Positions 6,971 to 61,958 of a stretch of DNA of 64,000 nucleotides are shown here, piece by piece. Positions within the stretch are counted from its first letter, which is position 1. Each line of letters begins with the position of its first letter. Under the pieces are notes generated by a model that was not told the DNA's origin, ran no database searches, and saw only the letters and a list, made by a program, of their open reading frames with translations. The stretch is from Stachybotrys elegans (lineage: Eukaryota > Ascomycota > Sordariomycetes > Hypocreales > Stachybotryaceae), in contig JAGPNK010000028.1 of the NCBI GenBank assembly GCA_020746835.1, forward strand, positions 124,001 through 188,000, in the 5' to 3' direction. The translations under genes and the position numbers were made by a program.

Positions 6971-7282
6971 GACGTTGCACTGAGCGTTGGTGTGGGCAGC
7001 GGTAAAGAGTAGAATTGTGATACAAAATCAAAACCGACGCTGGAATTTGCGAGTTGATCCATCCGAAAACGAACAAACCACCTCAGCCTTGTCAAGTTGG
7101 TCTTCGACGTTCGGTGGTCGCCAAGACCGGAGGTCAGTGTCGGAAACTGTCGGCACCCGAACGAACAAGGATCATCAGCGAATGGCCCAGATACTTATCG
7201 TTGCCTCCTCATATTGTTGGAGGCTCAATTCTATGGATACCGTACATTGACGAGCTCATAGCACTATCCAGCTCTTCCAGCA
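6971..7282. promoter_or_regulatory. Divergent intergenic region, NR-PKS / P450
   Basis: A 312-bp gap between the PKS start (minus) and the P450 start (plus), so probably a shared promoter. It contains several CGG/CCG triplets, including two TCGG repeats about 7120-7155, which are possible Zn2Cys6 half-sites. No cluster regulator gene lies in the window beside it, so this is only a suggestion. Confidence 0.4.
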
Positions 7283-41925: not shown

Positions 41926-43613
41926 TCAGGACCCCTTTCCGTCCCTCAGGAGGGCTACAATGACATCCACTACCTCAGACTGTACGTACGAGGCATGCAC
42001 CATGTCCACAACAGACGTGCCGCTCGCGTCCACCACGGTAGCGTCAACGCCGGCGGCAAGCAATGCCTTAACTACGCCAACGGCCCCGTGCTGCGCGGCC
42101 CATTGCAGAGGCGTCAGGCTTGGCTGCAAGACAAGGCGGTGGACAGAAGGGTCCATCATCGCTTTGCGGAGCCGATGGCCCCATGGCATGCCCTGGCGGT
42201 GCTGCGCGGAATGCAGCGTGGGCAGAGGCGCGCGAGCCTCCGGATCAACACCCTGCCCGATGATTTGCACGGCCATCTCGGCAATCCTCCCAAGCGCGTC
42301 GACATCACAGTGGAGGGCGAGCGCATGCAGTGTCGTCCAGCCCTCGTCGGTAACGATGCGAGCGTCGGCCCCATGGTGGAGGAGCAGCTGGGCTGCCCGG
42401 GTCGACTCGGCCGGCGTCGTAGTCGCCGTTGCCTTGTCGTACGTGAGGGGCGAGCTCAACGTCGGTGTCAGAGCGCACATGAGAGGGGTCCAGCCGTTGG
42501 TGTTTCTGGCGTTGACATCGAGCCCTTGCGCGATGAGGTGCTCCATGATTCCGATGTTGCATCCGGCGGCGGCGTAATGGAGCAGCGTCTCCCCGTTCAA
42601 GTTTGTTAGAACCAACAACGCCTCGCTGTTGCTGAGCGGAGAGAGGTAGAGTTTGAAGGAGGGCAAGTCCGCTCCAAAGGCAGCTAGCTGTAGAGGAGCG
42701 TCCCCCTTGTTGTCAGGCACCACCACCGATGCCCCATGCCGCACAAGCATCTCGATTGCCGCCTTGTTACTAGCCTGCCGCCCGCTGCTCCATCGGCCCA
42801 CGGGCACAGGCGACGCGACGATATGCAAGGCCGTGTATCCGGCCCCGTCCTGCCTATCCGGCTCTGCGCCCTTGGCGAGGAGCGTCGAGAGGGCGCCGAC
42901 AAGGTTGGCGTTGGAGGCGGCGCTGAGTAACACGTGGGCACCGCAAAAGGGACTCCCGTCTAGATCAGCACTAGCCTTGAGAGCATCGATGAGCAGCCCA
43001 ACCAGCCGCTGGTGATTGTGGTAGTCGAAACCTTCCGGCGTCGGCGGGTTCGGCCCGCCCCAGGCGCGGTCGTCGATGGCGGCGTCTAGTGCAGCCCCGA
43101 TCGTCCCCGAATCGAATACACTGCTCTGCAAGAGCACGGCTGTTGCGTCATGGTGCCAGTAGGCGGCCGCATGGATCAACGCCTCGGCCTTGAGATCGTC
43201 TGACCAGTCTTTCCAAGCCAGTAGGTCTTGGACAATATGCGTATGCCCCTGCTCTGCTGCACACGAAGCAGCGCCCGGCTCGCCGAGGTCAAGGACCACA
43301 GGCGCTTGACGACGTCGCGGTGTCCGGTATAGACGGCAAGGTACAGCGGCTGGCCTCTATACGGCTTGGTAGCAATGAGGAGAGGATCAGCCCCGGCGTC
43401 CAGTAGCAGGTCTACGGCATCAACGTCACCGCACCACGCGGCAAAGTGAAGCGGCGGCCCATACTCGACGTGGGCGCGGCTGAGGTCGAGGGCGTGTGAA
43501 GAGTCGCTGAGCAGTGCCTGTAGGCGGACGAGGTCACCGTCCCGAATGCACGCATGCATTGCATCCGCTGCATCCTGGAACTGTCCAGAGAGCTTTGACA
43601 GACTTTGCCGCAT
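41926..43613 (-). pseudogene. Ankyrin-repeat protein gene with one frameshift
   Basis: Two minus-strand frames make one ankyrin protein: residues from 43613 (MRQSLSKLSGQFQDAADAMH) to about 43,296 (GHRDVVKRL), then a different frame from about 43,299 (LDLGEPGAASCAAEQGHTHIVQDLL) to a stop at 41926. Ankyrin signatures recur: GPPLHFAAWCGDVDAVDLLLDAGADP, TALHIVAS, TLLHYAAAGCN, GWTPLMCAL, GWTTLHALAL, PLQWAAQHGAVGVVKALLAAG (each seen in part). The join needs a one-base shift and there is no intron there, so it is either a disabling indel or a sequencing error. Codon use is GC-rich, unlike the A/T block 70 bp upstream of its start. Function unknown; ankyrin repeats mediate protein binding. Confidence 0.7.
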
Positions 43614-43689: not shown

Positions 43690-43770
43690 GGGTCCCTATA
43701 GGTGCACTAGACCCGGTGTAAATAAGTCTATGCACTAGATCCAGTATATATAAGATTCCTTATATAAGCT
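43690..43770. repeat. Left terminal inverted repeat of the A/T-rich element
   Basis: Pairs with 48,375-48,453 in inverted orientation; the best stretch is GTGTAAATAAGTCTAT followed by CACTAGAT and AGTATATATAAGAT, with mostly C/T differences. Confidence 0.78.
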
Positions 43771-46700
43771 TTATTATATATATATATGATATAGTAGGTG
43801 CGTCTAGTGTAGAAAAAAGAATAATAGTATATATAAATAATAGTAGCCTTACTATCTATAGAACTAAAGAACAGTATTAAATAATAAAGGGATTGTTAGA
43901 TAATATCTCTTATTGGCTAGAGCTAGAGAATAATAAGAGGGCTATAATAGTGGCAGCAGCAGTAAGTATAAGTGTATGCAGTTGGGGGGACCTACGGTTA
44001 GCAGACTAGCCTTAATGTGTGTATATACTGTTTGTCAGCTGCAATTCCGGCAGAAGTCCTTAGACATGTAATGGCTATGGCTACGAATAGTACTATAGCT
44101 ATATTAGGCCAGGAATACATGATCTAGTATATAAGGCCTAGCCCTAGAATAGAGTTTAAAAGATATATATAAAAAGGCCTTTACTCTCTCTATTATCTCT
44201 CTCTTTCTCTTTCTTTTATTTATACTACTACTATTAGATTTGCTCTCTATTAATAAACTCTATATCTATAATAAACTAACTAAATAATTAGAATACTAGG
44301 GGTATCTCTAAGCCAAATCCCCCTACTAAATAGCCTAAGGCTATATATAGCTAAATATAAGTAAGTCTATTTATTCTAAGAGGCTAAGGAATAGTATTAC
44401 TAATAGTCTATATTAATAAGCTATGCCCTTTAAGCTCTTTAAAAGGCTTCTAGATTATTCTAATCTAGATTATTAGAAAATAAAAAGTAAGAAAAGAGAA
44501 TCCTTTTTAAAGATAACTAGATATCTCTAGCCTAAGAAATAGCTAGGTAAAATAACCCTTAAGAATAGGCCTTAATAGGCTATTATACTACTTAGTAAAG
44601 GGATTTAAGTATTTTAGGCTATATAAAGCCTAGATAATGTTTAATATATCCTATAGATAGAAAACCTTTTGCCTTATTAATTATACTACTATTAGTCTAT
44701 TTATAACTATATTTATAACTATAGTCTCTATAGTATATAGTTAAAGCTTTAATATAGTCTCTAAGATATAAATAATTAAGTATATTTATAAAAGGGTTAG
44801 ACTTACTATATAATAGGCAATTAGGCATTTCTATAATCTATTTAACCTTAGTATAACTAGAGAGAGAACCTTACTAATATCCCTTCTCTCTTAAATAGTT
44901 TTATTCTATACTTAGGGAAATATATATATATATAAGGATTAAAACTATTATTTAACTTTATTACTATATTTTTAAAGGTATTATAAGTCTATAATATATT
45001 AGAAAATTATTACTTTTATATTTACTTATGATTTATTTTCATTATTATTTCTTATTATTTATAAATAAAGAAATATATTAATAAAATAGCTATATAATAA
45101 TATATTCTTACTTTAATTACTATAGTAAGTATTAGTATTATAAATAATAGATTTTTAAGATTTTATATAATACTATAGTTTTTATTTTAATTAAAAAGGT
45201 AAGACTTTATTTATTTATATAATTATTAAAATAACTAATAACTATAATAATTATAATTACTTAATACTTAAGAGATCTCTCTCTATTAACTAAAATAATA
45301 CCTTTATTATAAAATAGATCTTAAGGAATAGCTAGTAATAATAAAGCCTTTTCTATTTTATAATAATTCTCTTTCTAATTATTAACTAGAATAGTATATA
45401 TATACTACTTAGTATTATTTAGAACTATAGAGTTTATTTCTTAAACCTTTAGAATATTACTACCATATAAACTATATTATATCTCTCTATTAAAGGCTTT
45501 ATAATAGTATAAACTAATTCTTTTTATACTATATATAGAGTTAGTAGTATATTTAATACCTTAATTAAGTCTATTATAAGTATTAATATTATTAAAACCT
45601 AGATATATATTTTATATAGTTTATATATACTTTCTAAACTAATAACTTTATATATTAAGCCTTAAATTATATAGTTAATAGAACTATATAGTCTATATCT
45701 ATAGTAAATATAATAACTTTTAAACTATAAATTAAAACTATTAAATAGTTAGAAATTTATTTCTTTAAGATTAATTACTATAAATATATTAAGTTTAAGT
45801 AATATAATACTTAATAAAAATAGATAAATATAGAATAATTAAATTTAAAGTATTTATAATAACTCTATATAGTATAATTTAACTATTTTATTATATCTTT
45901 TATAATAATATTTTAAATATTATTTATACTTTATTTTATTAAAATAAACTCTATAGTTATATTTTTTATAATATAGCTTTTAATTTATAGATTTTTAGTA
46001 ATATTTTAGTTAAAATAGCTTTATATTTTCCCTTTAGTTTAATCTCTCTAGCCTTTCTATATTATATATTTCTTTTTTATTTACTTTTAGTTAAAATATT
46101 AATTATACTCTATCTTACTATATTATAAAGATAGTCTCTATATTTTCTAGTACTACTAATTAATCTTTAAAGTACTCTAAGAAAGTAAAGTATATTATTT
46201 TTTCTATACTATATAGTATCTTTTAAAAATAGTATATAAATAGTAGAATAGTAAAGAGAACTTAAAACTAGTAGAGACTATTACTATTATAGAGAGTAGT
46301 TTTAATAATATAAAGATTATTAAATTAGACTTAGAAACTATAGTAATACTTAATAATAGTATTAGTAATTCTAACTTAAAGACTATAAGGGCTATTATTA
46401 TTAATAACTCTAACTTAAAGGCTATTAAAGCTATTATTATTAATATAATAAAATAATTATATTAAAGTAAGTATTTTTTAAGACTAATATATAACCTTAA
46501 ATACTATAATTTAAATATATTAATAGTACTTTATAGTATATTAATATCTTAATAGTTTTAAATATATTTAGCTTATAGTAAGTAATTGTTTTTAATAGTT
46601 AAAATCTAGTTATAAAGTTATTTTACTATTTAAAAGGTTTAATTATAAAATAAAAAACTCTTTTTTACTTATATAGTTAATATATATAAAAATATAATAG

Positions 46701-48374
46701 TTAAAGAAAAAGTTATTAATCAATTAGATTCTTTAATATATATATATATAGAATATTTTAATTTCTCTATATAGTTTATATATAAATAGAAAAAGCTTTT
46801 TTAGCTATTAATATTACTACTTAACTAATTATAATACTTTATAAAATATCTAGCTATATATAATAGAATATAGTATATTTAAAAGCTTAACTAGAATTAT
46901 TATTTACTACTAAGTCTAATATACTTTAAGCTTTTAAATTTAGTTAGTAATAGTAAACTTAATAGACCTCTAGGCCTTAAAGAAATTAAGTATAGATATC
47001 TTAAGGTATTTCTTTAAAACCTTATATATATTTTTCTCTTAAAATAATATAGTATTTCTAAAGTAAAGCTTTTAGTTAATCTAAGCCTTAATAATTTTTT
47101 CTTTATATAGATTAAACTAGATATTAAAAATATATTTAACTTCTATAGTATAGAAGGTTAAATATTCTTTTTTAAAGGTATTAAAAAGACTTTTATATAT
47201 TTCTTTATTATATAAAGCTATAAGTATATATTATATACTATAGAACTTATTCTAGGCCTTAACTCTCTTAGTATTCTATATATTCTATATAAAGCTAGGT
47301 TAATAATAGTAAAGAATAGCTTTATTTATATATTAAAGATATAATAAAAAGAAAGTTTTAAAAAATACTTATTTAATAGTATTTATAAAAGTAAAATAAT
47401 AATCTATAATTATTATAAATAGAAGTTATATCTTAATAAGCTTATAGATTAACTGTAATTACTCTATAGTCTAAATATAATTACTTTTCTTTTTATTACT
47501 AAGAAATATAAAGGTAATATAAAAGGAATATTAATAAATATTAATACTAATAATATTAAAAAGTAATATTTAATATTTATTAGTTTTATATATATAGTTT
47601 AATATTATTATATTTAGGTATACCTTAAGGTATTCTAGAGACTTTAAATATATAAATATTATATATATAATTTAGTTATTTTAATCTATCTTTATATAAC
47701 TCTAAAAACCTTTATTATTAAGCTTATTAATAAAAGTATATATATAACTTTAACTCTTTATAAGCTTTTACTTTCTCTATATAATATAATTATAAATATT
47801 CTACTATATAATATTAAAAGAAAGAAAAGCTTTAAGTAATAGAAAGTTATTAATATCTCATAAAGTAATTCTAGTATTAAATAGATATTTTATAATATTT
47901 TAATTATTTTTAACTATTTAATAATATATTAAATATACTACTATTAATAAACTTAAATTATAATTATATTATTTAAACTTAAGAGTATTTTAATACTAAA
48001 GAGTTTAAATTAACTTATTAAAGCTTTATTTAGCTATAATAGAAAATTAATAATCGATTTACTATAATAAAGTATTTTATATTTAATTTATTATATTAAA
48101 AAGTCTTTACTTAATATTATAGTTATAGTTAAACTTAGTAATTATTTTTTTATTTTATTTCTTTTTTAATTTTTTAATTATAAAGGTATATTTTTATAGA
48201 AATATCTAGATATTAATTATAATATATAAAGTATTTTTTAATTTATATTTAGCTTTTAGAGAAAAGTAATTATTAAGAAATTAATATATAGCTTTTATTA
48301 TTATTATTTTAATAATATAAAGGCTTTAAATTAATACTAAAAGTAAAATTTACTAATATAGCCCTAATATATAG

Positions 48375-48453
48375 ATTATATAAGAAATCTTATATATACT
48401 AGATCTAGTGTATAGACTTATTTACACTAGGTCCGGTATATCTATGGGCTCCC
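48375..48453. repeat. Right terminal inverted repeat of the A/T-rich element
   Basis: Reverse complement of the left terminus over about 75 bp, ending GGGCTCCC against the duplicated GGTTGTATT. Confidence 0.78.
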
Positions 48454-48462
48454 GGTTGTATT
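48454..48462. repeat. Right target-site duplication GGTTGTATT
   Basis: Identical to 43,681-43,689. Confidence 0.7.
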
Positions 48463-48789
48463 GGAGTTATTATATAAGCGCGGGTGCATGTTAGGAGCTG
48501 CATTTCTATGCCTTCTAGAGTCCGCTACCCTGTACGCTCGACGATGACCTTGTTATTTCTCTCTACTGTTACGACTGCATTGGTTGCCAGCACAAGGCAC
48601 TACCCCTACTGTTGATCGGCTCTCTTTTGCTTCTACCTTGGACTATGTGCCACTTTTCAGCATCATAGATAGAAGAAAGGAATGACCTCAGTGATCCTCT
48701 TTATTGTTTAAGTAAACATGACTTCGTATTTAGAGGGGCATTTAACAGGTGTGATATATGTTTTATGCATCCGTATTTCCTCCATACAC
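48463..48789. other. Intergenic between the transposon and the flavin reductase gene
   Basis: About 330 bp of normal composition, no gene seen. Confidence 0.45.
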
Positions 48790-49785
48790 TTAGCTATTAT
48801 TTCTCAAAGTGTTTACTGCATCAGACTGCACTAAGTTTCGGAAGGGCGGTGGTCGTGGAATCTCGAAAGCGCTCTGAACAGTTCCATATGTTGTCCCTCC
48901 AGCTCTAAACACTGGCCTCAGCTTACTTAGATCAGCTGTTGCCATATCTTCAGCTAGCGCCTGTCTCCAAATATGGAATCGAACAATCTCTACCAGGACA
49001 AGTGTAGCAGTGCGGCGTCCCGTACGTTTGCTGGATATTTCTTGGTGGGAATGCAATTTGCACTCGGCGGAGTAGGGTGACTCGGCAACAAATGGCGGCT
49101 TCACCACTGCGCTTGCTGCTGGTGTGAGACCTGCGAGATTCCACTCTGAAATATGTGGCGGGGTATTGATGGAGGTGAAGTTTGCTGCCCTGGATGTTCG
49201 GTCAGCCTTTCTTTCTGTCTAGATACGTAGTTCTAAGATGTGTAACACGAACTCAATGATCCAATCTGATGTCATGCTTATACATAGCTCTCCCGTATCA
49301 AGGATGTTTCTCAGTGTATCATTGGGATGCTCTCCAGCAAAGGCTAGTGAGTAGAGTGGTGGCTGAGGAGCGCAGTCAGATACAGACTATGGCTGCTGGG
49401 CTTCAATCGGACATACATCGGCAATGACGCACTGGAAGTACGAGAATGGCGCCAAGTTCCTCGTCTTACCATCGGCTGTGATTGTGCTGACGAGAGCGAC
49501 TGGTCGAGGCACGGTTGTAGAAATCATGAGTTTGTAGTTGAGCACTTCAGGGCGACCTTCTTCAGCGGGGTCTATCGAAATAAACTCCTCATTCTTCCAG
49601 TGGTTGCTGTTCGCACCATCGCCAATCTTCCAGCCCGGATGGGGTGATTTCGTGTACGTTGATGTATGGTTGAGCGGGTAGTCGGGACGTTGGCTCTGGA
49701 CGCTATCAAAATCCTTGTGAGGGTTCCGGTTTACCAAGGATTCCTTGTCAAAAGCCTCAATCGGGAGGCTGCGGATATTATCCAT
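48790..49785 (-). CDS. Flavin reductase-like FMN-binding protein
   Basis: A 292-residue FMN-binding split-barrel protein, likely NAD(P)H:FMN reductase supplying reduced FMN to a partner monooxygenase. Exons on the minus strand: 49417-49785, 49253-49362, 48790-49189; introns of 54 and 63 nt restore a continuous frame. Family marks: NYKLMISTTVPRPVALVST and NLAPFSYFQCV (FMN site), AGEHPNDTLRNILDTGE, AANFTSINTPPHISEW, and near the end EIVRFHIW and KLRPVFRAGG.TYG. The start is the ATG giving MDNIRSLP, because the frame above it only extends to a non-ATG codon. Divergent from the NCS1 permease. The obvious client is the FMN-dependent monooxygenase at 54,336-55,939. A CCGTCGG site lies in the shared upstream region. 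Confidence 0.9.
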
Positions 49786-50688
49786 TATAATACGGTGGGT
49801 TGTAGCTCGCTCTTTTTGCACTTTGATAGAGTACCAAAGGTAACTCGGAGGACTTGTGGGAATTCCCGATCCTGTACCTGAATGGGATGGAGACGGTGCT
49901 CACAGAGAAACAAACTAGGAACTAGGCCTGGTTTCTTATCGAATGGCAATGCTGTAGTAGCTCATTATTTTACTTATCTACCCCAGTTTGTCGCAATCGC
50001 GCATGCTGATGCATGATTGTCAGCCGGCAGGCAATCGCGGGCTTCCAACGGACCAAAAGATGCCGACGCACAGCTGCGCTTCAAATTGAAATGTACTGTG
50101 ACATCGGCTCTACGTTCCATCATCCCCTTCCCCAAACCGTTAACGGTGGGGTAATGCGGTTACTCCTGTATGCCCATCCGACTACCCGTCGGAGATATGA
50201 CGATGCAATACCGACCTTGGCTTAATCTAAACAATAACTTAATCGATAACAGACTCTACAGAGTACGAAATACGGTTCTAAACCTACCATCCAGGACAGA
50301 AACCCCACTTCCAATCTCAGCATCGTCTCCGCTCTTATCTTCTCCCAGCCCTTAAAACAAACCAAACTATGACCTAGCGCCCGTCTGACCATGATAACGG
50401 GTGTGGGGGGTAGAGTAGCTCGCTGGGTAGGGCCATGCAAGCTGAGGTGCTCACAAACACGCCTTACCGTTTGCCACGAAAGCGAGGAAGAGGATGTACC
50501 GATAGCTCCCGACAAGGGCGCCTCCTTATATAGAAGTGCCAACGGTCTTGAATTGAACCCTTGAAATTTCGCCCAATTGAACCTATCGAAGCTCCCTTCG
50601 AACGATCTACAACAAAAAGCCCACCGCCTGGTTGTTGTGACCTGCGGCATACTCCCAAATTGGGTATTCGCTGCGACGAAGCTGCATA
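49786..50688. promoter_or_regulatory. Divergent promoter, flavin reductase / NCS1 permease
   Basis: About 900 bp without a credible gene, serving both divergent genes. Contains CCGTCGG at 50,186-50,192, the motif shared by the cluster. Open frames on the minus strand at 50,222-50,807 look like chance. Confidence 0.55.
50186..50192. promoter_or_regulatory. Putative Zn2Cys6 site CCGTCGG
   Basis: CCG-N-CGG inverted triplets in the flavin reductase / NCS1 intergenic region; one of six upstream copies in this cluster. Confidence 0.5.
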
Positions 50689-52639
50689 ATGGCGGTCTTC
50701 AATCTCCGGCCGAGGGTACCTCGAACCTTTCGGTCTTTGAGGGTTAACGACGGCGTCGAGGGAAGCAAATGGGCCAACGAGGATGTTTTACCCATCCCTG
50801 AGCACAAGCTCTCCTTTGGGTGGCAAGCCTACTTTGGCTACTGGTCAGTGCTCCGGGAGACGATCGCACAAGAGCTCCTCTGCTGGGTTCGTTTGCTTCA
50901 AGCTAACCATCTTGCAGGTGCGCCGTCGGTTTCAATACGACAACATGGTCTCTCTGCTCGTCTAACCTCGCCGCGGGCCTCGACGCCGGCGGAGCAATGG
51001 GGGGCATCTTTGTCGGAACGGTCCTGGCCTTCTTTGTCGCCGTTGTTTGTGGCGAGCCTGGTGTAAGTTGCTGCGAAGGGCTCCAATTCTTCGAATACGG
51101 CTAATTCGTGACAGCTTCGCTACCATCTAGGGTTCCCAATGATGGGCCGAGCTACCTTTGGCATGTACGGCTCTTGGTTCGTCATCATTCTTAAATGCTT
51201 CGTCAACGTCGTTTTGTGAGTAATGCTACAGCCCCTGAAGATACCCCAGCTTATGATGGCAGCTTCGGATTCCAGTCTTACTGGGGCGGACTCGCCGCGG
51301 ATGTGGTTCTTTCATCAATCTTTCCGAGCTTCCAAAACCTCGCGAATACTCTGCCTGAGAGTGCAGCGATTACCACAAAGCAGCTAGTCGGCTTCGTCTG
51401 CTACATTCTTGTTTTCACGCCCCTGATGTTCATCCATCCAACCAAACTGCAGCCGTTTTTGTTTTCCTCCCAGATCTTGGTCAACTGTACCATGGCCAGT
51501 CTCTTTATCTGGGCCATGGCGCGCAACGGCGGAGCTACCTTTTTGCCTCCAGCAGTCGAGATCAGCTCCAGGTGAGAACAGCGATCTCGAGCCCATTTTC
51601 CTGTGTTCTGGAGCTAATCATCCCTAAGCACCCGGTCTTTCCTCATCCTCCAAGCGATGAGTTCCGTCGCTGGCTCTTGGACCGGCGCTTGCATCCGACA
51701 GTCTGACTGGACACGTATGTCCAAGTCTAGGGCCGCAGTGCTATGGAACCAAGGTGTCACAGGAATTATCGCCGCCAATGTTTGCGCTTTGCTAGGTATT
51801 GCTACCACGAGTGCTGTGTCCCACATGTATGGGACACCCATCTGGAACCCCATCAACCTCTTGTTGTTCTTGCAGGAGAACAACTACGATGCAGCGACAC
51901 GTGCTGGAACCTTTTTCGCCGGCTTTGGCTTCTTTTCCAGCCAAGTTACGATCAATCTCGTTCAAAATTCCGTCTCGTGTGGCATGGACCTTGCTGCCCT
52001 TGCGCCCAAGTGGATTGATGTAACACGAGGATCGCTCATCATGTGTTTGATCGGCTACCTGATCCAACCATGGCGCTTTGTCAATTCTCCAGGCATCTTC
52101 ATTTCCGTATTGGTTTCATTCGGCATGTTTGTGTCTCCTCTGGCTGGAATCAATTTTGTTGATTTGTAAGTACCGCCAACCGATTTCCGCCGAAGCATCA
52201 TCTAACTATTGCAGCTGGGTTGTTCGGAGACGCAATTGGAAGGTGCCAGATCTCTACAAGGGTGGTAAAGAATCCATTTACTGGTACACCTTTGGCCTCA
52301 ACTGGCGTGCCTTTGTCTCCTGGACCATGGTCGTCTGGCCCTGTCTACGTATGTTGTGTCACCAAAGACAAGATAAGAATTGTGCTGATGTTTTCTCTAG
52401 CTGGCTTCGCGGGCGCCATGTCAGGGGCTGACGTCTCCACTTCATGGCGAAGAGTGTTCCAACTTTCTTGGGTTGTTGGCTTTTGCGGCGGAGCTCTCGT
52501 CTACTATCTTATTTCCCTCATTTCACCGCCTCCTGGAGCACCGTACGTCAGTGAATTGCTTCATTCAGACGTTATTGAAGCTTCAAACGGCTCCGATGAG
52601 GAAGTTGGAATGAGTACGGAGTTGAAGGACAAGAAGTGA
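50689..52639 (+). CDS. NCS1-family permease (uracil/allantoin/purine transporter type)
   Basis: A 539-residue, about 12-helix plasma-membrane symporter for nucleobases or related heterocycles. Exons: 50689-50843, 50918-51062, 51115-51215, 51263-51571, 51629-52165, 52215-52348, 52401-52639. Family marks: an N-terminal cytosolic stretch with SKWANEDVLPIPEHK, TTTWSLCSSNLAAGLDAGGAM (helix 1-2), the HLGFPMMGRATFGMYGS segment, FQSYWGG, the central SWTGACIRQSDWTRMSKS loop, INLVQNSVSCGMDLAAL, and NFVDFWVVRRRNWKVPDLY. The C-terminus is acidic and hydrophilic. It resembles the fungal Fur-type branch. Its location suggests it imports the compound that the monooxygenase system degrades; specificity cannot be read from sequence alone. 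Confidence 0.93.
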
Positions 52640-53131
52640 TTATCCTACTGGGAGGACAGACGGTCTCAGTGGAAGCCGGTCTTTTTTCTCTATTGGTGGA
52701 GGGTCGAGGAGCTCGCTACCAATAATATGAAGTGTTTCTAGCGAACTGTGGTTCTTCGACATGAAGACAGGCCCTTATCAAACCCTGATGTCTAATTGTT
52801 CTGTAGACGTACATGTATGAAAGGAAATAACCGTGAAACGCATGCTTCTAGTCTAATAATTGTTGTTGGTTGGCTACCTAGTGAACGACGATGTCACTGG
52901 CGAACGTGACAGGAAGTTCATGTGAAGACGCATCATCGCACAGCCATGATGCTGGAGTAGAGGCAAGTATGTGAGCCGTCGGCAAGGACAACAACTTCCG
53001 ACTTGCCGATAGATAAGACCCATAGTAATGAGACTAGAGTGTCCTATTTTTATGGCAGCAAATTCCCTTGCTCAAGATATGTGTCGCAGCAGAAAACACT
53101 CCCGAGTCTCAATCTACGCTTTCAAGCAATA
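52640..53131. promoter_or_regulatory. Intergenic, promoter of the hydrolase-fold gene
   Basis: About 490 bp with no gene; contains CCGTCGG at 52,976-52,982, about 150 bp before the start codon. Confidence 0.5.
52976..52982. promoter_or_regulatory. Putative Zn2Cys6 site CCGTCGG
   Basis: Shared cluster motif upstream of the alpha/beta hydrolase-fold gene. Confidence 0.5.
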
Positions 53132-53980
53132 ATGGATCCAGTTCTCCATATCAAAAAATCGTACGCCGATACCCCTTATGGGCAAGTCCATTACCGATAT
53201 ATCTTGCCTGTATCGTCGGAGCCACAAAAGACGCCCATCGTGATGCTTCATAAGTCGGCCTCATCATCAGCATCCTACGAGGCCATCATGCACCATTTGG
53301 CTGCGCAAGGCTATAATTGTTACGCACTTGACATGCCTGGCTTTGGCGCTTCGTTTGATCCACCAGAGGAAGCCATTGCAGAGATTCTGAAGAGAGGCAC
53401 TCGATGGTACGTCGAGGTATTTGTGTCAGCTCTGACAAGCATTGGACTGCTGGGAAAGCCAGCCAAAGTGCACCTAATGGGACATCACTCCGGAGCTTCG
53501 CTTGCCCCTGAGCTCGCCGCCACACACCCGGATGCGGTTGAAACCGTGACACTTATTGGGACTGCGGTTATGAGTGAGAACGAACGGGCCGAGATGAAGA
53601 AAAAGTATTTTGAGCCATTCAATAAGCCCGTCCCAGATGGGAGTCACTTATTGAAGACATGGGATTATCTCAGGAGCATGGGAGTCGGGGATGACATTGA
53701 CATGTTTCAGCGCGAAGCTGTGGATCACATCCGAGCATGGAAGGGCCGCAACCAAATCTATGGCGCGGTTTGGGAGCAGGATTTAGGTGGCTACTTGGAC
53801 ATGGTTAAATGTCCCATCATGTTTGTTTGTGCAAGAGACGACGTCTTGTGGGAGTACCAGGAAAAGGCCAAGGAAAGATGGACACATGCAGTGTATATCG
53901 AGTGTAGGGGAGCCAACTTTTCCCCTGATCTTGACTCGGATACCATCTGCAAGGCTTGGTTAGCTTTTACTCAAGCATGA
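53132..53980 (+). CDS. Alpha/beta hydrolase-fold protein with altered catalytic residues
   Basis: A 282-residue single-exon protein of the alpha/beta hydrolase fold. The start is the ATG that gives MDPVLHIKKSYADTPYGQVHYR; codons above it are leader. Fold marks: GQVHYRYI, PIVMLHKSASSSASYEAIM, CYALDMPGFGASFDPP (the strand 4 and helix B region), the elbow HLMGHHSGASLAPE, and MFVCARDDVLWEY (acid). Odd: the nucleophile elbow reads G-H-H-S-G, so the standard Ser/Asp/Cys position holds His; and the segment that normally carries the catalytic His reads GANFSP with Asn instead. It may be a non-hydrolytic member (lyase or binding protein) or use shifted residues. It lies between the permease and the monooxygenase, with the shared CCGTCGG motif upstream. 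Confidence 0.88.
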   Translation: MDPVLHIKKSYADTPYGQVHYRYILPVSSEPQKTPIVMLHKSASSSASYEAIMHHLAAQGYNCYALDMPGFGASFDPPEEAIAEILKRGTRWYVEVFVSALTSIGLLGKPAKVHLMGHHSGASLAPELAATHPDAVETVTLIGTAVMSENERAEMKKKYFEPFNKPVPDGSHLLKTWDYLRSMGVGDDIDMFQREAVDHIRAWKGRNQIYGAVWEQDLGGYLDMVKCPIMFVCARDDVLWEYQEKAKERWTHAVYIECRGANFSPDLDSDTICKAWLAFTQA

Positions 53981-54335
53981 TAATATCAAAGAATTATTCT
54001 TATGCATTGATGGCTATACCAGAAGGAATGATATGAAATACGACAAAATTGACTCCGAAGAAAAGATAAAGGGAAAACCCAGAAAATAAGGCTTGCTTAG
54101 CGATACCTTCATTGTCTGGCTCTGTCCCGTCCCCTTGGGCAACGGGGCAACCGTCACTATTTGCACAGGCGCTTGTTCTTTTCCATCTCTGCACGCACAT
54201 GTAAGTTAGCACGGAATAACCCGACAACTCACTCCTTTATCTAGCCCGTGGGAGAAGCACACCCAGACAGTAAGACGAGAACTGGATGTTAGAGTTGGAA
54301 ATATCAAGTCTTTTTCTCTAATTATACGACAGAAA
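53981..54335. other. Intergenic, convergent 3' ends
   Basis: Between the hydrolase-fold gene and the monooxygenase. No gene seen. Confidence 0.5.
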
Positions 54336-55939
54336 TTAAGGGGCTTGGTTGGGAGTACTACTGGTTTCTGCCTTCATTGCCTCCTCGTATTCCGCCATCT
54401 TATCACCCTTGAAATCACTGGGGTACTTGAACTTGGACCCGTAATGATCAGGCGGAAGATCCGTCTTTCCCTTTTCTCCGTAGATGTTCTCTCGGAGCGT
54501 GCCTCCTTCGACATCGTAATTCTCCCACATTCGTCCGCGCTTCATGAGCTCTGGAACGAGCAGCTCGACGATATCCTCCTGACTGCCAGGAGTATTGATG
54601 TACGCAATGTTGAAACCGTCGATATCGGCCTCGTCAATCCACTTCTCGAACACATCCGCAACCATTTCCGCGGTTCCGACAGGGCAGGGATGAAAACCAC
54701 CTAGGGCCATCTTCTCGCCCAGCTTGCGCGGCGTCCAAGCGTCGGTGTGGCCAATGGCTTTTCCAAAGTTGTCCAAGAACGAATGCACTGCGTCATCGCC
54801 CGGCTCTCCCTTGAGCTCAAAAACCTCATCGATCGGAAAGCGTGAGAGGTCGATTCCGGTGTAGCCAGAGAATTGAGCCAAGCCTCCAACAATGTCGCAA
54901 TTCTCCTTGGCTCTGTCATACTTTGCCTGCGCTTCCTCGAGTGTCTTGCCCAAGATGCAAGATATACCAAAGAAGAACTTGACTGAGGCGGGATCACGAC
55001 CGCGAGCAGCGGCGGCGGCGCGGATTTCGGCAACGTTGGCCTTGGTCTGCGAAGGAACGAGGCCGCCGATATATACAGCTTCGGCATGCTTTGCGGCAAA
55101 GGACTTCCCAGACTTGGAGGTACCCGCTTGGAAGATGACAGGACTCCGTTGAGGTGAAGGATGAAGAGGCCCAATTGTTGATGCCTTGAAATATTTCGCT
55201 AATTAGGGCAGTCAGCAACAGGCACAAGGCTAGTACTGTATCCCATTAGGACAAACCTTTATGTTCAATTTTCTTGACCTTTTCAGGGTCAAATGCAATC
55301 CTCCTCTCCCGATCCCAAATCGGACTGTCAGGGCCCCAGGAACTCTCCCATAACTTGTACATGAGATCCATGTATTCCTCTGCAACAGCATAGCGTTCAT
55401 CATGGGGAACGACGTCATCGTAGCCCAAGGCTTTCGCGGTGCTCTTGCTCCAACTGGTGACAACATTCCAGGCTACACGGCCGTTTGTCAAATGGTCCAG
55501 CGAGCTGAGTGTCCTCGCTAGCGTGAAGGGCGTTAGATAGCTGGTGCTTGCAGTCACGCCAAATCCAACCGTTTTTGTCACAGCAGCCATGGCAGAGACC
55601 AACGTCATGGGATCCAGCGTTGATACATGGGCACCAGCACGCAGCATATGCTCATATGTACCGCCGTAGATCTCATGGGTGTTGTAGCTATCAGCCAGAA
55701 AGATGAAGCTGATTCGACCCTTCTCTGCCAGTTTTGCCAAGTTGATCCAATACTCTAACGTATCCTTGGTCTTGCCTTTGTCGTCAGGATCTCTTTTGTG
55801 CGTTAGCATGAGTGCCAAGTACATCAGTAAGCCTGGCCCCTTACCTCCACAACCCTGGCGACATGTGCGATCCGGTACAGCCATGGTCGAAAAAGTTCAA
55901 GAAGATGCGCTTCTTCGCGCCAAGTCCCTCTGTTGCCAT
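54336..55939 (-). CDS. FMN-dependent monooxygenase, luciferase-like NtaA/SnaA/DszA group
   Basis: A 497-residue class C flavin monooxygenase that uses reduced FMN from a separate reductase. Exons on the minus strand: 55845-55939, 55257-55792, 54336-55198. Exon 1 gives KKRIFLNFFDHGCTGSHMSPGLW, the family's N-terminus, and splices in frame to RDPDDKGKTKDTLEYWINLAKLAE. Other marks: IFLADSYNTHEIYGGT, GVTASTSYLTPFTLARTLSSLDHLTNGRVAWN (seen in part), QAGTSKSGKSFAAKHAEAV, and a C-terminal FNIAYINTPGSQEDIVELLVPEL. Relatives open or cleave heteroatom compounds such as nitrilotriacetate, dibenzothiophene sulfone and pyrimidines (RutA is a more distant relative). The reductase gene at 48.8 kb is the natural partner. 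Two CCGTCGG sites lie about 280 bp upstream. Confidence 0.93.
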
Positions 55940-56754
55940 GCCGGCTTAACTGAAATATTCTTTGGTGATTTGGGAACAAGACCAGGCTAATTGATGCAGT
56001 TCAATGCAGCGACAATGGGGTGCAGGGGAAAAAATATGAATATATGAAGCACGCCTTTACTTGGTCTTGTAGTTACTCAGAAGTCAGAGTATGTCTTTGG
56101 TCTTGTCTGATACTTATCTCAGCATCACATGATGTGACGTGATGCGACCTGTTCCCCCATCATCTGTTATCCAGTTCACCCTACTCTTCCCTTGCGCTAG
56201 GAACCTTGAGCTGGTTCCGTCGGAAAGAAGCCGTCGGAATGGTTCCAAAGTCCCGACGCAGTGAACCCAGAGGTGCCAGCTGTCGGCACCCTGAACCGAT
56301 TTAGCCAGTTATACGAGTCAGATAACAGCCTGTGGAGGCAATGGACGGCTGGGGTAGCGAGTCATCCACTATCCGTTATCTTGCGCCGATTAATTCCCCG
56401 ATTGTGGCAGCGGAATAACGCTCAACGCAATGTGGACTTTGTAGACGATTAGATAGTAAAGAGAAAGTCAAGATCCTCAGCTTGATAACCACTGTAGCAA
56501 CACTAGACTGCTATCCTAGAAGTTCTCTATTCATAGTATAATCTCAGTTTTCACCAACGGCATAGTCTATCAAAATACAGCTAGCTGTAAATAGAATACT
56601 TAAATTAGCCAGTATTGTGTCGCCTTTCCGTAATAGCTAAGTGAAAATCCCACTTTGCTAGACCTTGCGCCTTCATCCCGTCAACGACACCATGAGGAGA
56701 AAAAGTACGTAGTGCGAGGTAGAAGAACCACTGGCGGCAAGAGTTTCATTATGC
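55940..56754. promoter_or_regulatory. Monooxygenase promoter region
   Basis: About 815 bp between the monooxygenase start and the 3' end of the regulator gene. Holds a tandem pair of CCGTCGGAA at 56,217 and 56,231 (14 bp apart). No gene seen. Confidence 0.55.
56217..56237. promoter_or_regulatory. Tandem pair of putative Zn2Cys6 sites CCGTCGG
   Basis: CCGTCGGAA occurs at 56,217 and again at 56,231; the first is in the longer context GTTCCGTCGGAA, which recurs at 61,898. Confidence 0.55.
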
Positions 56755-59219
56755 CTATATAGATGACGAGTAGCTTTGCTGCTCTACAGTATTCCAATCA
56801 TTCTGTTGCAAGTCCATCAGCGTTCCAACGGTTGTGTCATCCTCCCGTCCGCCAGGAAAGGCAAAGATCATGCCATCAAATAGAGGCATGCCTTCCATGG
56901 GTAGCTCAAAGTTGAAGTCAGGGTCCTCGGCCGAAGGCGCATCCGCTGCCATGTTCTGCCATTTGAGAACTGAATCATCGCCACTCTCTGTGGTCATGGT
57001 ATCAGCTTTGTCAACCGCCATGTCATTCACCATGGCAGAGAACTCGCCTCGACAGTCACCTTCACTACTTCCAGCGCTGCACAATGCCATGATGACCTGG
57101 CGCCTCAGGTCAATGATGGACCGTCGTGGCTGATCTTCTTGCTCAATCGACTCCATGACAGACTGTTTGATGACGTCGAAAACATCGCGAAATTTGCGAG
57201 CGCCAACCCAGCGTTCTGCAATCACATACAGGACAATACTACAGGAGTCGAGTCCATTGCTTGTTGAGATACCGAATACTTCGTTGGGTGCTGCCCAGAT
57301 GCAGTAAAGAAGTGTTAGGCCGGCAATGAAGATGGAATGTAGAGCCATGACGGAAAAGCCCACCGGGACTGACTGATGAAGCTTTTTGTATGTCTGACAC
57401 ACGCCGGCACAGGCTTGGGCACATCTTTTCAGATAGTGGACATCCGCAGCTTCAGGGGAGAAAATAATAGGGTAAAGAAGAAATCGTATGCACTTGTAGT
57501 AATATACCATCTACAGCATTGTTAGCATGTTGCAATAACGTGGTTGAGGTCAAGGAAAAATCTCACGTAGTTGTCAAAACCGTCGACCCTCATGGTGCTG
57601 AAATCAGGCAACTGCTGAGCATCCAGAGGCAGCTCCGACTTCCACTGGTCAATCCGCACAAGGAAGCTCTCGACGTCTGCTTTGACATTTGACGGGACCT
57701 TGTCAACGCGGTATATTGTCTGTTGAATCTCTGACTCGATCTTCCGCAGGCGGCAGATATGGATAAATCCAGTCATTGATGTAGAAGACTTTGGGGTTCG
57801 TGTTGGGTGACTCCGTGCTTCGTTCTGGGCATTTCGCAACCTGCTCTCATCCTCAATATCCTCATCGATATCTGTAGGTAGCTCAACATCGATGTCTCGG
57901 TCGGATATCGAGAATGGTCGCCCTAAGATGATGGAGACTTGGCGATCGAGACAATAACATGTCCAGAACACGCGTCGTCGCATTTCGTCTATGAGGGGCC
58001 ACTTCATGTGAGTTTGGCGATGCAAGCCCATCTCTATGCACTGCCTCATGGCGAGACCAGCAAATTTCCATGCTCCCGGGCCTCTCGGCGACCTTAGATT
58101 GTACAGCGACAAGAGTATGAGGATTTGAATGGATCTCAGCCCGGCGTGCATTCTGACAATAGCGTCCAATTGAAGCATGGCTTTCTCACAATGCTGATCG
58201 GAATGAAACTGTCCGGTTTGACCGGCGGTTTCCAAGAAACGACCGCCAATAGCATAAACTAAATGTAGAGCGGCGATTCTACTCGGTTAGCTCCGGAATA
58301 AGGCACGGGACATGGTTTTGCTCACTCATAGACATCGGTGAGACTCCCTCGTGTCTCGTGAAGTTGTCGAATATAGGGTGTGTGCATCACCGGCCACCTT
58401 GTCGAGATGTGGACCATGTAGCTGCGGAAAAGTGTATTGGCGATATTTGAGGGCAGATGGGCAAGATTGATCTGGGCCCGTTGCGATTCTGAAGACGAAT
58501 TTGCGGACTTTGGGCTAAGATGCTCCCAGGTGCTGCTTTCAGAAGGGCCAAAGTGTTCGTCATGGGCATCTCCCTCCTCTGCTGTATTGTTCCGTGGTTG
58601 GACCATGGAGTTAATAATCCGGCTCATGGTGATTTGTGACGTCGCACCCATATACTCCCCCAATGCCCCAATAGACATCTCTCGAAGCAAGCCAAGCAAA
58701 GGACGCGCTGCCCCCGAACTGCACTCGCTTTTCCCTTCCATGAGCATCGCAGACGGAGTTAGCCCAGCCGAAGAATTGGTACGGGCGGCGCGACTCGGGC
58801 TTTTGTATGGATTGCCCTCATCAGTCAAGATACTGCTTGTAGACGCACGTCTATCCCTGTCGAGGTTGTTGCTTCCATCCTGCTTTCCCACCATCATCTC
58901 AAGCTCAGCCAGCCGCTTCTGCATCGCTTCGAACAATGGTTGACCATGACTTTGCGCCCGGGTGCGGGCAGGTGGATAAACACACCGGACATTGAAGGAG
59001 TCACAATTAGAACAAGGCGTCTTTCCATCACATCTGTAAATCAATGTTAGCAGAAGCAGACGCCATACGTGAAGTCCAGGGATGGCTTATCTGCTTCCGT
59101 GACTTGCACCGCTGACAGGCTACCGCAACCCGCCCTCGCCTTGTTGGCCGAGGACCGGCGGGGGTCCGGCAACGCGAGGGTTCATTCAATTCGAAAGAGG
59201 TCTGGTCGTGACATGCCAT
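56755..59219 (-). CDS. Zn2Cys6 fungal transcription factor, with an apparent AT-AC intron inside the zinc cluster
   Basis: A 769-residue Gal4-type regulator. Exons on the minus strand: 59091-59219, 58326-59035, 57567-58281, 56755-57510. The zinc cluster spans the first splice: C35QRC38-KSRKQ then RC45DGKTPC51SNC54-DSFNVRC61, exact C-x2-C-x6-C-x5-C-x2-C-x6-C spacing. A linker and coiled coil (FEAMQKRLAELEMMVG) follow, then the fungal-specific middle homology domain with GAWKFAGLAMRQCIEMGLHRQ and RRRVFWTCYCLDR. The first intron starts ATAAGC and the frame only joins if it ends in AC (TTTAC|AGA), with a GCTAAC branch site nearby. The gene sits among the catabolic genes and is the best candidate to bind CCGTCGG. 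Confidence 0.9.
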
Positions 59220-59643
59220 AGTGTCTAGTTCGTGTCAAACAAAGGTGCGTATGCTTAGGGAGCAGGAAACGGGCTGACATTCCGTCATGACCTTCGTGGC
59301 CGGGGTACCTTATCTACAACCAATCCCGGCGGCTCAAGTTGAAGACATCGAACTTGGGTAGCCTAGATAAGATGCCCCAGGATCCCGGCGATGGGGAGTG
59401 GGGATCCCATGATAACGACATTAGCCCCTATTGACTGCCCACAAAAACCGAGACGATGGATGACACAATTGCTTAGACCCAGCATGGATTTACACACTGA
59501 CATGATTTGGGAGATTGTATTTACACTACCCTGCCACTACCTGCGATGGCAATACATAGCTACTGGAAAACACAATCTAGGCAGAGCGCAGTGCTCCGTG
59601 CTCAGTGCCTCCTTTCCTGCATCCATTTGACCACTGTCCCAAT
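59220..59643. other. Intergenic, promoter of the regulator
   Basis: About 420 bp. No exact CCGTCGG here, so the regulator may not control itself through that motif. No gene seen. Confidence 0.45.
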
Positions 59644-61512
59644 CTAGATCCTGCCCTTTTCAAGGAATCTCTCAGGAATATCAACTGGCTTTGTCCTGAT
59701 AAACTCGCAAATAAACTTGCCTAGGACATCATAGGTAGCATTTGCTGTGACACCACGATCCAAATGGTCGTGGATGAGGAAGTGCACTGCCCACAGGTTG
59801 GGAAACTCCAGACGATCGATCTTCTGTCCTTTGTACTCTTGGTCCATCAGCTCGATGAACTTGTCGCTTGTGAGGAAAGACCTCAGCCAAGGCCACTGCG
59901 CCTCTTCCCTCACAAAGAAGCCCACATTGCAGTTCGAGCCCTTGTCGCCTGCCCTTCCCATAGCGACATAGCCGAAAGGCACATTGACGGTGGGGGTGAG
60001 GGAATCAATGGCTACAGGCTCCTCAGTTTCCGAAGACTCCATTGTAGCGGAAGGGCTTAGAGTATCTTCGGGTGGCAGAATAATAAGGGAGCTCATCTCT
60101 GGCTTAGAGAAATGCACGTAGACAGTGGGTTGTGGGATAAGAGTGGGAAAGTACTCTTGAAACTGAAGAGCAATGTTAGCGACAGTCAGCAAGTTTCATG
60201 TGCTCCAACTTACAGCCATGGGCTTTGTGCTTCGTTTATCTGGGTGAAAGGTCGCGGCCGGGAAAGAGGCCATGATGAAGTCAAGCGCGGGTCTCGCAAA
60301 GTTGGCTGCTGATAACGAGTCCTTATCCCTGGCCTGTACCACCAGTCGCAGGTCTACAGTCGCCTCGTTCTGGTTTCGCGGGTTCGCCGGCACCGAACCG
60401 TAATGTTGTAGTGAGAACAGACTAAACTTGGCCAGGCGCTCCGGCCCAAAGTTCTGGCGGAGTTGGATATCCGTCATCTTGACCTTTTCTTCGATATCGA
60501 GACCGACCAGTGCCCAGTGCAGCTCGGCGGTGTAGCCACCGGGCGCGGTCAACCCGGCTTTTGTTGTCTTTGGCGGTGGTAGGCCCGTGATTCCCGACAG
60601 GCGCACGCGATTGGGTGCGATCTCTTCGAATTGCGCCCTGTCTATGACAGCCGTGACATCGCAGTTGAGGTAGTGCTTGCCCTGGATCTCGTACAGAAGC
60701 TGTTCTTTGCAAGTTTCGATATTGACGACGCCGCCTGTGCCCTCGTTCTTGGTGATGATCACATCACCGTCGGCCGCAATCTCAGCAATTGGATAGCCAA
60801 GATCATGAATCAGATCCCAGTCGAGGCTCTTGAATCCTGTGTAGTTGCCGCCGGTCACGTAGGTCGAGCATTCGATAAGATGCCCAGCCATGAGCGCTCG
60901 AGCCAGTTGATCGTAGTCTGTTCGTGCCCATCCATGCCACCATGCAGCAGCACCGATCGTCGGTGAGGCGTCCGCCACTCGGCCGCATACAACAATGTCA
61001 GCTCCGGCTTCCAATGCTTTTGCGATTGCCCAGCCGCCAAGGTAGCATTGAGCAAACACCGGCTCGTAATTCCATGAATCGAGGTCTATTCCTGCTGAAA
61101 TGTGTGTGAATTTGGTGCCGCTCTCCCGAAGAGTCCGAACCATATCCATCACCGCGTCTCCTTCGACCCATGCCACCGTTAGGTCGAGACCCTTTTGGTT
61201 GACCATCTTCACGACCTCATCATACAGGTCTTTGGTGGCCACCACGCCTGCGTTGACGGCGAGGCGGATTTTCTTCTTTGCCAGGTTTCCGAGCGCCGGT
61301 TCCAGAGCCTCTAGAAACGTTGGTTCATACCCAATATCCAGACCCTGAGTATAGTCCACCGCACGAGAGGGCATATTCAACTCAGACATCCAATCTCCAG
61401 TGAAGATGTCCACTGGCTCGTCGGATGCGGCCACTCGTGAGAGGATTTCACGTTTGTCTACGGGCGAGCCCGAGATATTCATGATGCGAACTGGCCTTTT
61501 GATTGCCGCCAT
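59644..61512 (-). CDS. AtuA-like protein (DUF1446, with C-terminal ferredoxin-fold domain)
   Basis: A 605-residue protein. Exons on the minus strand: 60214-61512 and 59644-60162 (51-nt intron, phase 0). The N-terminal DUF1446 domain opens with RIMNISGSPVDKREI and holds FTGDWMSELNM, HISAGIDLDSW, VVCGRVADASPTIGAAAWW and CSTYVTGGNYTGF. The second exon carries the AtuA-like ferredoxin-fold domain: GRAGDKGSNCNVGFFVR and FPNLWAVHFLIHDHL. In bacteria AtuA belongs to the acyclic-terpene utilisation operon, but its reaction there is not settled, and fungal copies are uncharacterised. A role in carboxylate/CoA-type catabolism is possible. Divergent from the MDR reductase; two CCGTCGG sites lie between them. 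Confidence 0.9.
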
Positions 61513-61900
61513 GGTGAGATATTGCGCAAGGACGATACCGACTGTAGCAACTCAAAGGCGAGTGAAAGGTAAGGATGGTCGGAGAAAATGGGGACTATGC
61601 AAATGGAAGATGTGGATAACACTGGCGGAAGAGACAGGCTCAGTTCATCGGTGCGCTTGGGTCCTCGCTTCGTTGGGTGGGATATTACTTTTGCCTCTGC
61701 TTCCGAACAAGTATCTTCGCAAACCGTCACCCTGCTTATACGGGCATGATAACAGCAGGGATTTCCGTTCGTATGCTATCCCGCCTCATGTCCTGATACC
61801 ACCCCGAGAGCGTGGGGTTCGAGAAGATGGCTATCTCTATCACTCCCTGTGGGTCGGTTGGAGATAATCCTAACCAGCGCGCGGAACGACCATCGTTGTT

Positions 61901-61907
61901 CCGTCGG
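61901..61907. promoter_or_regulatory. Putative Zn2Cys6 site CCGTCGG
   Basis: Lies in GTTCCGTCGGAAC, a 13-bp palindrome apart from its central base; same core as 56,217. Confidence 0.55.
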
Positions 61908-61951
61908 AACTTGCGTAACACTGCCGACGACTTGACCCACAAGGGCCGCCA

Positions 61952-61958
61952 CCGTCGG
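61952..61958. promoter_or_regulatory. Putative Zn2Cys6 site CCGTCGG
   Basis: Second copy in the AtuA-like / MDR reductase intergenic region. Confidence 0.45.

What the first reader, a model, noticed from the sequence alone, without database searches (positions are those of the whole stretch)
49786..61958. CCGTCGG lies upstream of every enzyme and transporter gene of the 48.8-63.5 kb cluster
CCG-N-CGG occurs at 50,186 (flavin reductase/NCS1), 52,976 (hydrolase-fold), 56,217 and 56,231 (monooxygenase), 61,901 and 61,952 (AtuA-like/MDR). Two copies sit in the longer GTTCCGTCGGAA. By base-count reasoning well under one hit would be expected in these roughly 2.8 kb of upstream DNA. Elsewhere I noticed it only inside coding sequence (about 680 and 60,766). 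A Zn2Cys6 regulator with standard Gal4 spacing sits in the middle, so a CCGNCGG regulon covering seven genes is a testable proposal.
Basis: partly seen in the sequence, partly recalled or inferred. Interest (0 to 1): 0.8.

Follow-up and report, generated by a model that had tools for sequence, protein, structure and literature searches.

The report
Shared promoter motif in fungal cluster
In a mould, the genes of one compact cluster, probably for using a nitrogen-containing compound, share a short mirror-image DNA word in their promoters that is probably the docking site of a control protein encoded in the middle of the cluster; the binding has not been tested.

Summary
CCGTCGG is at all six stated upstream places; the four spacers carrying it serve all six enzyme and transporter genes. 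In these 3,270 bp there are 7 CCGNCGG against 0.63 in shuffles (0 of 3,000 reach 7) and about 0.2-0.5 from ORF-masked DNA of the same genome. Of 63 zinc-cluster-type dyads it is first (P 1.9e-6; next 0.018). It is also first of about 43,680 dyads of any kind, but that alone does not survive correction. The source is Stachybotrys elegans. Homologues of regulator, monooxygenase and NCS1 permease co-occur in other fungi. The regulator has a proper Zn2Cys6 domain only if an AT-AC intron is spliced, which would explain why the public model lacks it. Most likely it is a pathway-specific regulator binding everted CCG-N-CGG, perhaps controlling itself; GATAAC words suggest added nitrogen control. Binding and orthologous promoters could not be tested.

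The parts
50186..50192 (+). CCGTCGG in the divergent flavin reductase/NCS1 spacer
   Evidence: 400 bp before the flavin reductase ATG and 496 bp before the NCS1 ATG
52976..52982 (+). CCGTCGG, 149 bp before the hydrolase ATG
56217..56223 (+). CCGTCGG within TTCCGTCGGAA (56215-56225), 277 bp before the monooxygenase ATG
56231..56237 (+). CCGTCGG, 291 bp before the monooxygenase ATG
59326..59332 (+).
61901..61907 (+). CCGTCGG within TTCCGTCGGAA (61899-61909); 388 bp before the AtuA ATG, 241 bp before the MDR ATG
61952..61958 (+). CCGTCGG; 439 bp before the AtuA ATG, 190 bp before the MDR ATG
48790..49785 (-). flavin reductase, 292 aa, 2 introns
   Evidence: model; PF01613 E 4.5e-24
50689..52639 (+). 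NCS1 nucleobase/allantoin-type permease, 539 aa, 6 introns
   Evidence: model, identical to public protein P0241; PF02133
53132..53980 (+). alpha/beta hydrolase, 282 aa, single exon
54336..55939 (-). NtaA/DmoA-family FMN-dependent monooxygenase, 497 aa
   Evidence: TIGR03860 454.7 bits, cut-off 279.7; best solved relatives by sequence: dimethyl-sulfide monooxygenase, alkane monooxygenase, riboflavin lyase
56755..59219 (-). Zn2Cys6 regulator, 768-769 aa, 3 introns, the first (59090-59036) with AT-AC ends
   Evidence: model; PF00172 and PF04082; splice options
59644..61512 (-). AtuA-family protein, 605 aa, single copy in the genome
   Evidence: PF07287 E 4.2e-158, PF23544; one match in the genome
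62149..63492 (+). MDR-type zinc-binding-dehydrogenase-like protein, 425 aa
   Evidence: PF08240; PF00107 below its cut-off

Best explanation
The seven genes form a catabolic cluster under a dedicated Zn2Cys6 regulator encoded within it. The regulator, as a dimer through the coiled coil behind its zinc domain, binds the everted repeat CCG-N-CGG (best form TTCCGTCGGAA) in the four spacers that serve the six enzyme and transporter genes, and switches them on when the substrate or a compound made from it is sensed. A site before its own gene (CCGGCGG) would give autoregulation. The enzymes fit uptake of a nitrogen heterocycle by the NCS1 permease, oxidative cleavage by a reduced-FMN monooxygenase fed by its flavin reductase, then hydrolysis. 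GATAAC words in the same promoters suggest an additional nitrogen-control input through a GATA factor. Shown: the sites, their enrichment, the gene content, co-occurrence of three of the gene families in other fungi. Inferred: binding, dimer geometry, activation, inducer, substrate.
For: CCG-N-CGG is in 5 of 5 spacers; 7 CCGNCGG against 0.63 in shuffles, 0 of 3,000 reach 7; first of 63 zinc-type dyads at P 1.9e-6, next 0.018; first of about 43,680 dyads of all kinds at P 3.3e-6; 0.2-0.5 expected from ORF-masked DNA of the genome. TTCCGWCGGAA: 12 places in 43.4 Mb, 2 of them here (P 4e-7, flanks chosen after seeing the sites). The regulator carries the domains of a zinc-cluster factor; 66 of 120 listed homologues hold a complete zinc domain by pattern and 64 of those 66 share RKQ[KR]C[DN]G. 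Regulator, monooxygenase and NCS1 homologues lie on contigs of equal length in 7 other fungi, with close locus tags in several. Five of six paralogous monooxygenase loci lack the motif.
Against: No binding or expression data. No orthologous promoter could be read. The fully blind dyad scan does not survive correction (about 0.14). CCGNCGG pairs within 30 bases occur at 184 places genome-wide, so a pair alone is not rare. Only 2 of 7 sites have the longer palindrome. Six further CCGNCGG lie inside the cluster's genes. Ten of the 12 TTCCGWCGGAA places lie outside the cluster, some upstream of unrelated genes.
Confidence: 0.6

Rival explanations
1. The sites are real control elements but are bound by another zinc-cluster or other protein encoded elsewhere; the cluster's own regulator uses a different site.
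For: The genome holds many zinc-cluster regulators (61 matches to this one, many of them partial). Nothing here ties the protein to the DNA except position. The regulator's specificity cannot be read from sequence.
Against: No other zinc-type dyad is enriched in the spacers (next P 0.018); the motif is also in the regulator's own spacer; the regulator's relatives co-occur with the same gene families.
Confidence: 0.2
2. Chance: seven copies of a seven-base GC-rich word picked out after the fact in a stretch of about 51% G+C.
For: The blind dyad scan gives only about 0.14 after correction. The word is common genome-wide (12,446 places) and lies six more times inside the cluster's genes. The cluster was chosen because the motif was noticed.
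Against: 0 of 3,000 shuffles of the same spacers reach the count; all five spacers are hit; it is the one zinc-type dyad enriched, next to a zinc-cluster gene; 0.2-0.5 expected from ORF-masked DNA.
Confidence: 0.1
3. The regulator is a decayed gene: the first intron has lost its splice ends, no zinc domain is made, and the sites are relics of an older circuit or serve another factor.
For: No GT-AG or GC-AG splice gives six residues between the second and third cysteine at this junction. The public S. elegans model starts after the domain. A paralogue in this genome (L027) has a normal GT-AG intron one codon further on.
Against: AT-AC ends restore exactly CX2CX6CX5CX2CX6C in frame. The rest of the gene is open and similar to S. 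chartarum, whose public model breaks at the same junction (RCDG) but keeps a conserved half domain, linker and coil, as if the unusual intron were shared.
Confidence: 0.06

Closest known systems
Zinc-cluster regulators with everted-repeat sites: Leu3 (CCG-N4-CGG), Pdr1/Pdr3 and NIT4/NirA (no spacer) (site details recalled; that Leu3p and Pdr3p recognise everted repeats appears as a reference title in PMC5082525)
   Same: a zinc cluster followed by a coiled coil, and CGG triplets pointing outwards
   Different: one-base spacer here instead of four or none; not tested by binding
Cluster-specific Zn2Cys6 activators of fungal nitrogen catabolism acting with a GATA factor, such as UaY or PrnA with AreA (recalled)
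   Same: the regulator is cluster-encoded or pathway-specific, with repeated sites in the pathway's promoters and GATA words beside them
   Different: other site geometry (recalled: UaY TCGG-N6-CCGA; PrnA CCGG repeats); substrate unknown; the GATA input is only an enrichment noticed after a scan
Bacterial Rut pyrimidine-degradation operon (flavin-dependent monooxygenase, flavin reductase, hydrolase, nucleobase permease; gene content recalled)
   Same: the same four activities side by side
   Different: the monooxygenase is of the NtaA/DmoA family (TIGR03860, 454.7 bits, cut-off 279.7) and far under RutA's cut-off (67.0 of 498.3); the hydrolase is far under RutD's (21.9 of 238.5); AtuA and MDR genes are added

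Membership tests
Zn2Cys6 (Gal4-type) transcription factor | six cysteines in CX2CX6CX5-12CX2CX6-8C | tested here: met
   CQRCKSRKQRCDGKTPCSNCDSFNVRC, PF00172 37.4 bits against cut-off 21, but only with the AT-AC splice; canonical splices fail
Zn2Cys6 (Gal4-type) transcription factor | fungal-specific middle homology domain | tested here: met
   PF04082 113.7 bits against cut-off 23
Zn2Cys6 (Gal4-type) transcription factor | binds CGG-type triplets | not testable with these tools
   only promoter enrichment
Leu3-type everted-repeat site (CCG-N4-CGG) | four-base spacer | tested here: not met
   the enriched spacing is 1; CCG-N4-CGG is not among the 12 best of the 63 zinc-type dyads
Regulon conserved across species | motif in orthologous promoters | not testable with these tools
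   no fungal DNA outside this genome is held; viral scans found no relative
NtaA/DmoA FMN-dependent monooxygenases | TIGR03860 above the curated cut-off | tested here: met
   454.7 bits, cut-off 279.7
Rut pyrimidine pathway | RutA and RutD equivalogs above cut-off | tested here: not met
   67.0 of 498.3 and 21.9 of 238.5 bits

The most novel reading that the evidence does not exclude
A family of Zn2Cys6 regulators that travels with NtaA-type monooxygenase clusters across Pezizomycotina uses a so far undescribed geometry, everted CCG triplets with a one-base spacer, and in Stachybotrys its DNA-binding domain is completed only by splicing an AT-AC intron, which has hidden it from annotation.
Probability: 0.25. 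Interest if true: 0.55.

Novelty: new member of a known kind. Interest (0 to 1): 0.42.

Why it matters
It gives a fungal catabolic cluster for which I found no description (listings only), and whose core gene families co-occur in several classes of ascomycetes, a concrete switch: one regulator, one short site, seven genes, testable with a single DAP-seq or reporter experiment. If the one-base everted spacing is confirmed it adds a geometry to the zinc-cluster code, and the hidden zinc domain warns that automatic annotation can lose such regulators.

Tried and rejected
Orthologous promoters: the collections I could search hold no fungal genome other than the window's own. Scans of viral contigs with alignments of monooxygenase and NCS1 homologues gave no relatives. 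The genome-contig scan kept the best 80 of 571 bacterial monooxygenase relatives, 39-47% identical. tblastn of five cluster proteins against these 80 loci (up to 6 kb flanks, E 1e-6) found NCS1 in 1, MDR in 2, and flavin reductase, hydrolase and AtuA in 0: no counterpart cluster among them, so no substrate hint.

A wider regulon: of the 12 TTCCGWCGGAA places, 10 lie outside the cluster. By reading translations around them, 5 look coding (NmrA-like, MFS, two copies of one related large ORF, P450-like) and 5 are upstream or unassigned (before a secreted amidase, between divergent DOMON-like ORFs, before a superoxide dismutase, two without a clear gene). None is evidently related to the pathway. 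These names are mine from reading ORFs, not from a family search.

Paralogous loci: of the eight loci besides this one, six were fetched and read; the two weakest, on C6 and C11, were not.

Rut membership was rejected. Literature: no paper held contains CCGNCGG as a word; CCG-N-CGG with zinc cluster, 0 papers; of six written forms, one unrelated insect paper holds CCGTCGG (listing only). Four papers were seen as passages. The library is open-licence only, so absence there is weak.

Mended on checking: my first background count, 0 CCGWCGG in 29.5 kb outside ORFs of 100 aa or more, depends on the mask. That mask hides sites which may be non-coding (36414; L025 4125 before the amidase; L030 914). 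With ORF limits of 130 to 250 aa the background holds 3-5 CCGWCGG in 40-63 kb, 0.24-0.29 per 3,270 bp. The background dyad sample is 95.5 kb and partly chosen: L024 and L025 were fetched because they hold the motif, which works against the enrichment; L026-L031 are paralogue loci. One splice acceptor in my regulator model (58282) probably lies 3 bases on, as the public model P0121 reads YEIAAL.
Full report
WHAT IS THERE. The window lies in a 43.4 Mb fungal genome (contig C21, 252,484 bp). Most of the regulator (77%) is 100% identical to a Stachybotrys elegans protein on a contig of the same length, and the NCS1 model is 100% identical to another protein on that contig length, so the source is S. 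elegans. I rebuilt the seven genes with introns: flavin reductase, NCS1 permease, alpha/beta hydrolase, NtaA/DmoA monooxygenase, Zn2Cys6 regulator, AtuA protein and MDR dehydrogenase (families).

THE MOTIF. All six upstream CCGTCGG are real and lie outside coding exons. A seventh site, CCGGCGG at 59326, stands 106 bp before the regulator. The five spacers total 3,270 bp and hold 7 CCGNCGG and 6 CCGWCGG; dinucleotide shuffles give 0.63 and 0.33, and 0 of 3,000 reach the observed values. Against genome rates (12,446 and 6,122 places in 43.4 Mb) P is 5.6e-5 and 9.0e-6. In 95.5 kb of the same genome (window 1-43.5 kb and L024-L031) there are 17 CCGNCGG. Outside ORFs of 100 aa or more there are 2 (0 CCGWCGG) in 29.5 kb; with ORF limits of 130 to 250 aa, 6-10 (3-5 CCGWCGG) in 40-63 kb. 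That is 0.22-0.52 CCGNCGG and 0-0.29 CCGWCGG per 3,270 bp.

IS THE CHOICE OF MOTIF FAIR? Of 63 zinc-type dyads (three orientations, spacers 0-20), CCG-N1-CGG is first at P 1.9e-6, the next at 0.018. Of about 43,680 dyads of any trinucleotides it is also first (P 3.3e-6), which alone would not survive correction (about 0.14); second is GATAAC. GATAAC occurs 9 times in four of the five spacers (none in the hydrolase's) against 0.9 expected from ORF-masked DNA, and HGATAR 24 times against 11.6. These GATA figures were taken after the scan had pointed to them.

SPECIFICITY WITHIN THE GENOME. Six paralogous monooxygenase loci (32 kb; six of eight found) hold two CCGNCGG, both in L030: one in the monooxygenase reading frame, one between two divergent ORFs. 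TTCCGNCGGAA has 41 places genome-wide, 12 of them with T or A in the centre, two of these in this cluster; the other ten show no pathway relation. Pairs of CCGNCGG within 30 bases occur at 184 places genome-wide, so a pair alone is not rare. AtuA is single-copy.

THE REGULATOR. Its zinc domain reads CQRCKSRKQRCDGKTPCSNCDSFNVRC only if the intron 59090-59036, beginning ATAAGC and ending TTTAC, is removed; no GT-AG or GC-AG choice gives six residues between the second and third cysteine. The public S. elegans model begins after the domain. The S. chartarum model fuses AtuA directly to RCDGKNPCSNC, the same junction, which suggests a shared unusual intron; its DNA could not be read. A paralogue in this genome (L027) has a GT-AG intron one codon further on. 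Of the 120 homologues listed, 66 hold a complete domain by pattern; 64 of these 66 have RKQ[KR]C[DN]G and 41 have RVALACQRCK.RKQKC[DN]G. The nearest solved domains by sequence are LAC9, PUT3, PPR1, LEU3 and GAL4, all with weak scores, so the spacing cannot be read from a relative.

CO-OCCURRENCE IN OTHER FUNGI. The protein tables give the length of the longest contig for each hit, and equal lengths tie families together. This is my matching by eye, which list 120 of 2,817, 120 of 194 and all 117 hits; an equal length suggests one contig, not adjacency. Monooxygenase, regulator and NCS1 all share a length in S. chartarum, Xylariomycetidae FL2044, Trichodelitschia, Halenospora, Xylariales PMI_506, Coleophoma crateriformis and Mytilinidion, 7 besides the window's own. 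In the last three the regulator is only 36-39% identical and the contigs are megabase-sized, so these are weak. Closer evidence lies in locus tags: S. chartarum S40293_03749 (AtuA-regulator) and _03751 (NCS1); Saxophila LTR77_001063 (regulator) and _001065 (NCS1); Cylindrodendrum G7Z17_g1424 (NCS1) and g1428 (monooxygenase); Penicillium taxi N7495_002444 (NCS1) and _002452 (regulator). Seiridium unicorne also has a fused AtuA-regulator model (P0128). More distant pairs of monooxygenase and regulator also have adjacent or near tags (Capronia coronata A1O1_03360 and _03362, C. epimyces A1O3_06974 and _06976, Meristemomyces LTR85_005711 and _005712). Many listed homologues do not pair in this way.

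READING. The ordinary and best-supported account is a pathway-specific Zn2Cys6 activator with an everted CCG-N-CGG site throughout its own cluster, perhaps with nitrogen control through GATA words. The substrate is unknown. An NCS1 permease with a reduced-flavin monooxygenase suggests an N-heterocycle, by analogy with pyrimidine breakdown, but this is not the Rut pathway. What the finding lacks is the decisive comparison with orthologous promoters and any binding data.

Noticed in passing
window 59036-59090, minus strand: First intron of the regulator has AT-AC ends (ATAAGC...GCTAAC...TTTAC) and splits the zinc domain; the public S. elegans model lacks the domain, and the S. chartarum model breaks at the same junction.
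   Followed up: partly
window 50245, 50393, 56166, 56321, 56375, 56484, 59411, 61615, 61748: GATAAC/GTTATC is the second most enriched dyad in the cluster spacers (9 against 0.9 expected), which hints at GATA-factor nitrogen control.
   Followed up: partly
window 43700-48500: AT-rich island, 18.5% G+C, TpA/ApT 1.43 and (CpA+TpG)/(ApC+GpT) 0.19, as after repeat-induced point mutation of an old repeat, directly beside the cluster.
   Followed up: no
window 763-8526: Polyketide synthase pieces (acyltransferase, ACP, ketoacyl synthase, methyltransferase-type HTH_51; minus strand) next to a cytochrome P450 ORF: a probable secondary-metabolite cluster.
   Followed up: no
window 41926-43356: 476-aa minus-strand ORF rich in ankyrin repeats in the most G+C-rich kilobase of the window (64%), next to the AT-rich island.
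   Followed up: no
window 53132-53980: The hydrolase has GHHSG where alpha/beta hydrolases usually carry G-x-S-x-G, so histidine stands at the nucleophile position (sequence; the comparison is from memory).
   Followed up: no
L034 2001-2076 (G000:C34, about 453952): Two CCGACGG 67 bp apart, the first within TTCCGACGGAA, near the start of two divergent ORFs that look like DOMON-type secreted oxidoreductases.
   Followed up: no
L027 (G000:C12:228500-234000): A paralogous monooxygenase divergent from a paralogous Zn2Cys6 regulator, with no CCGNCGG in the 5.5 kb: a sister circuit with another site.
   Followed up: partly
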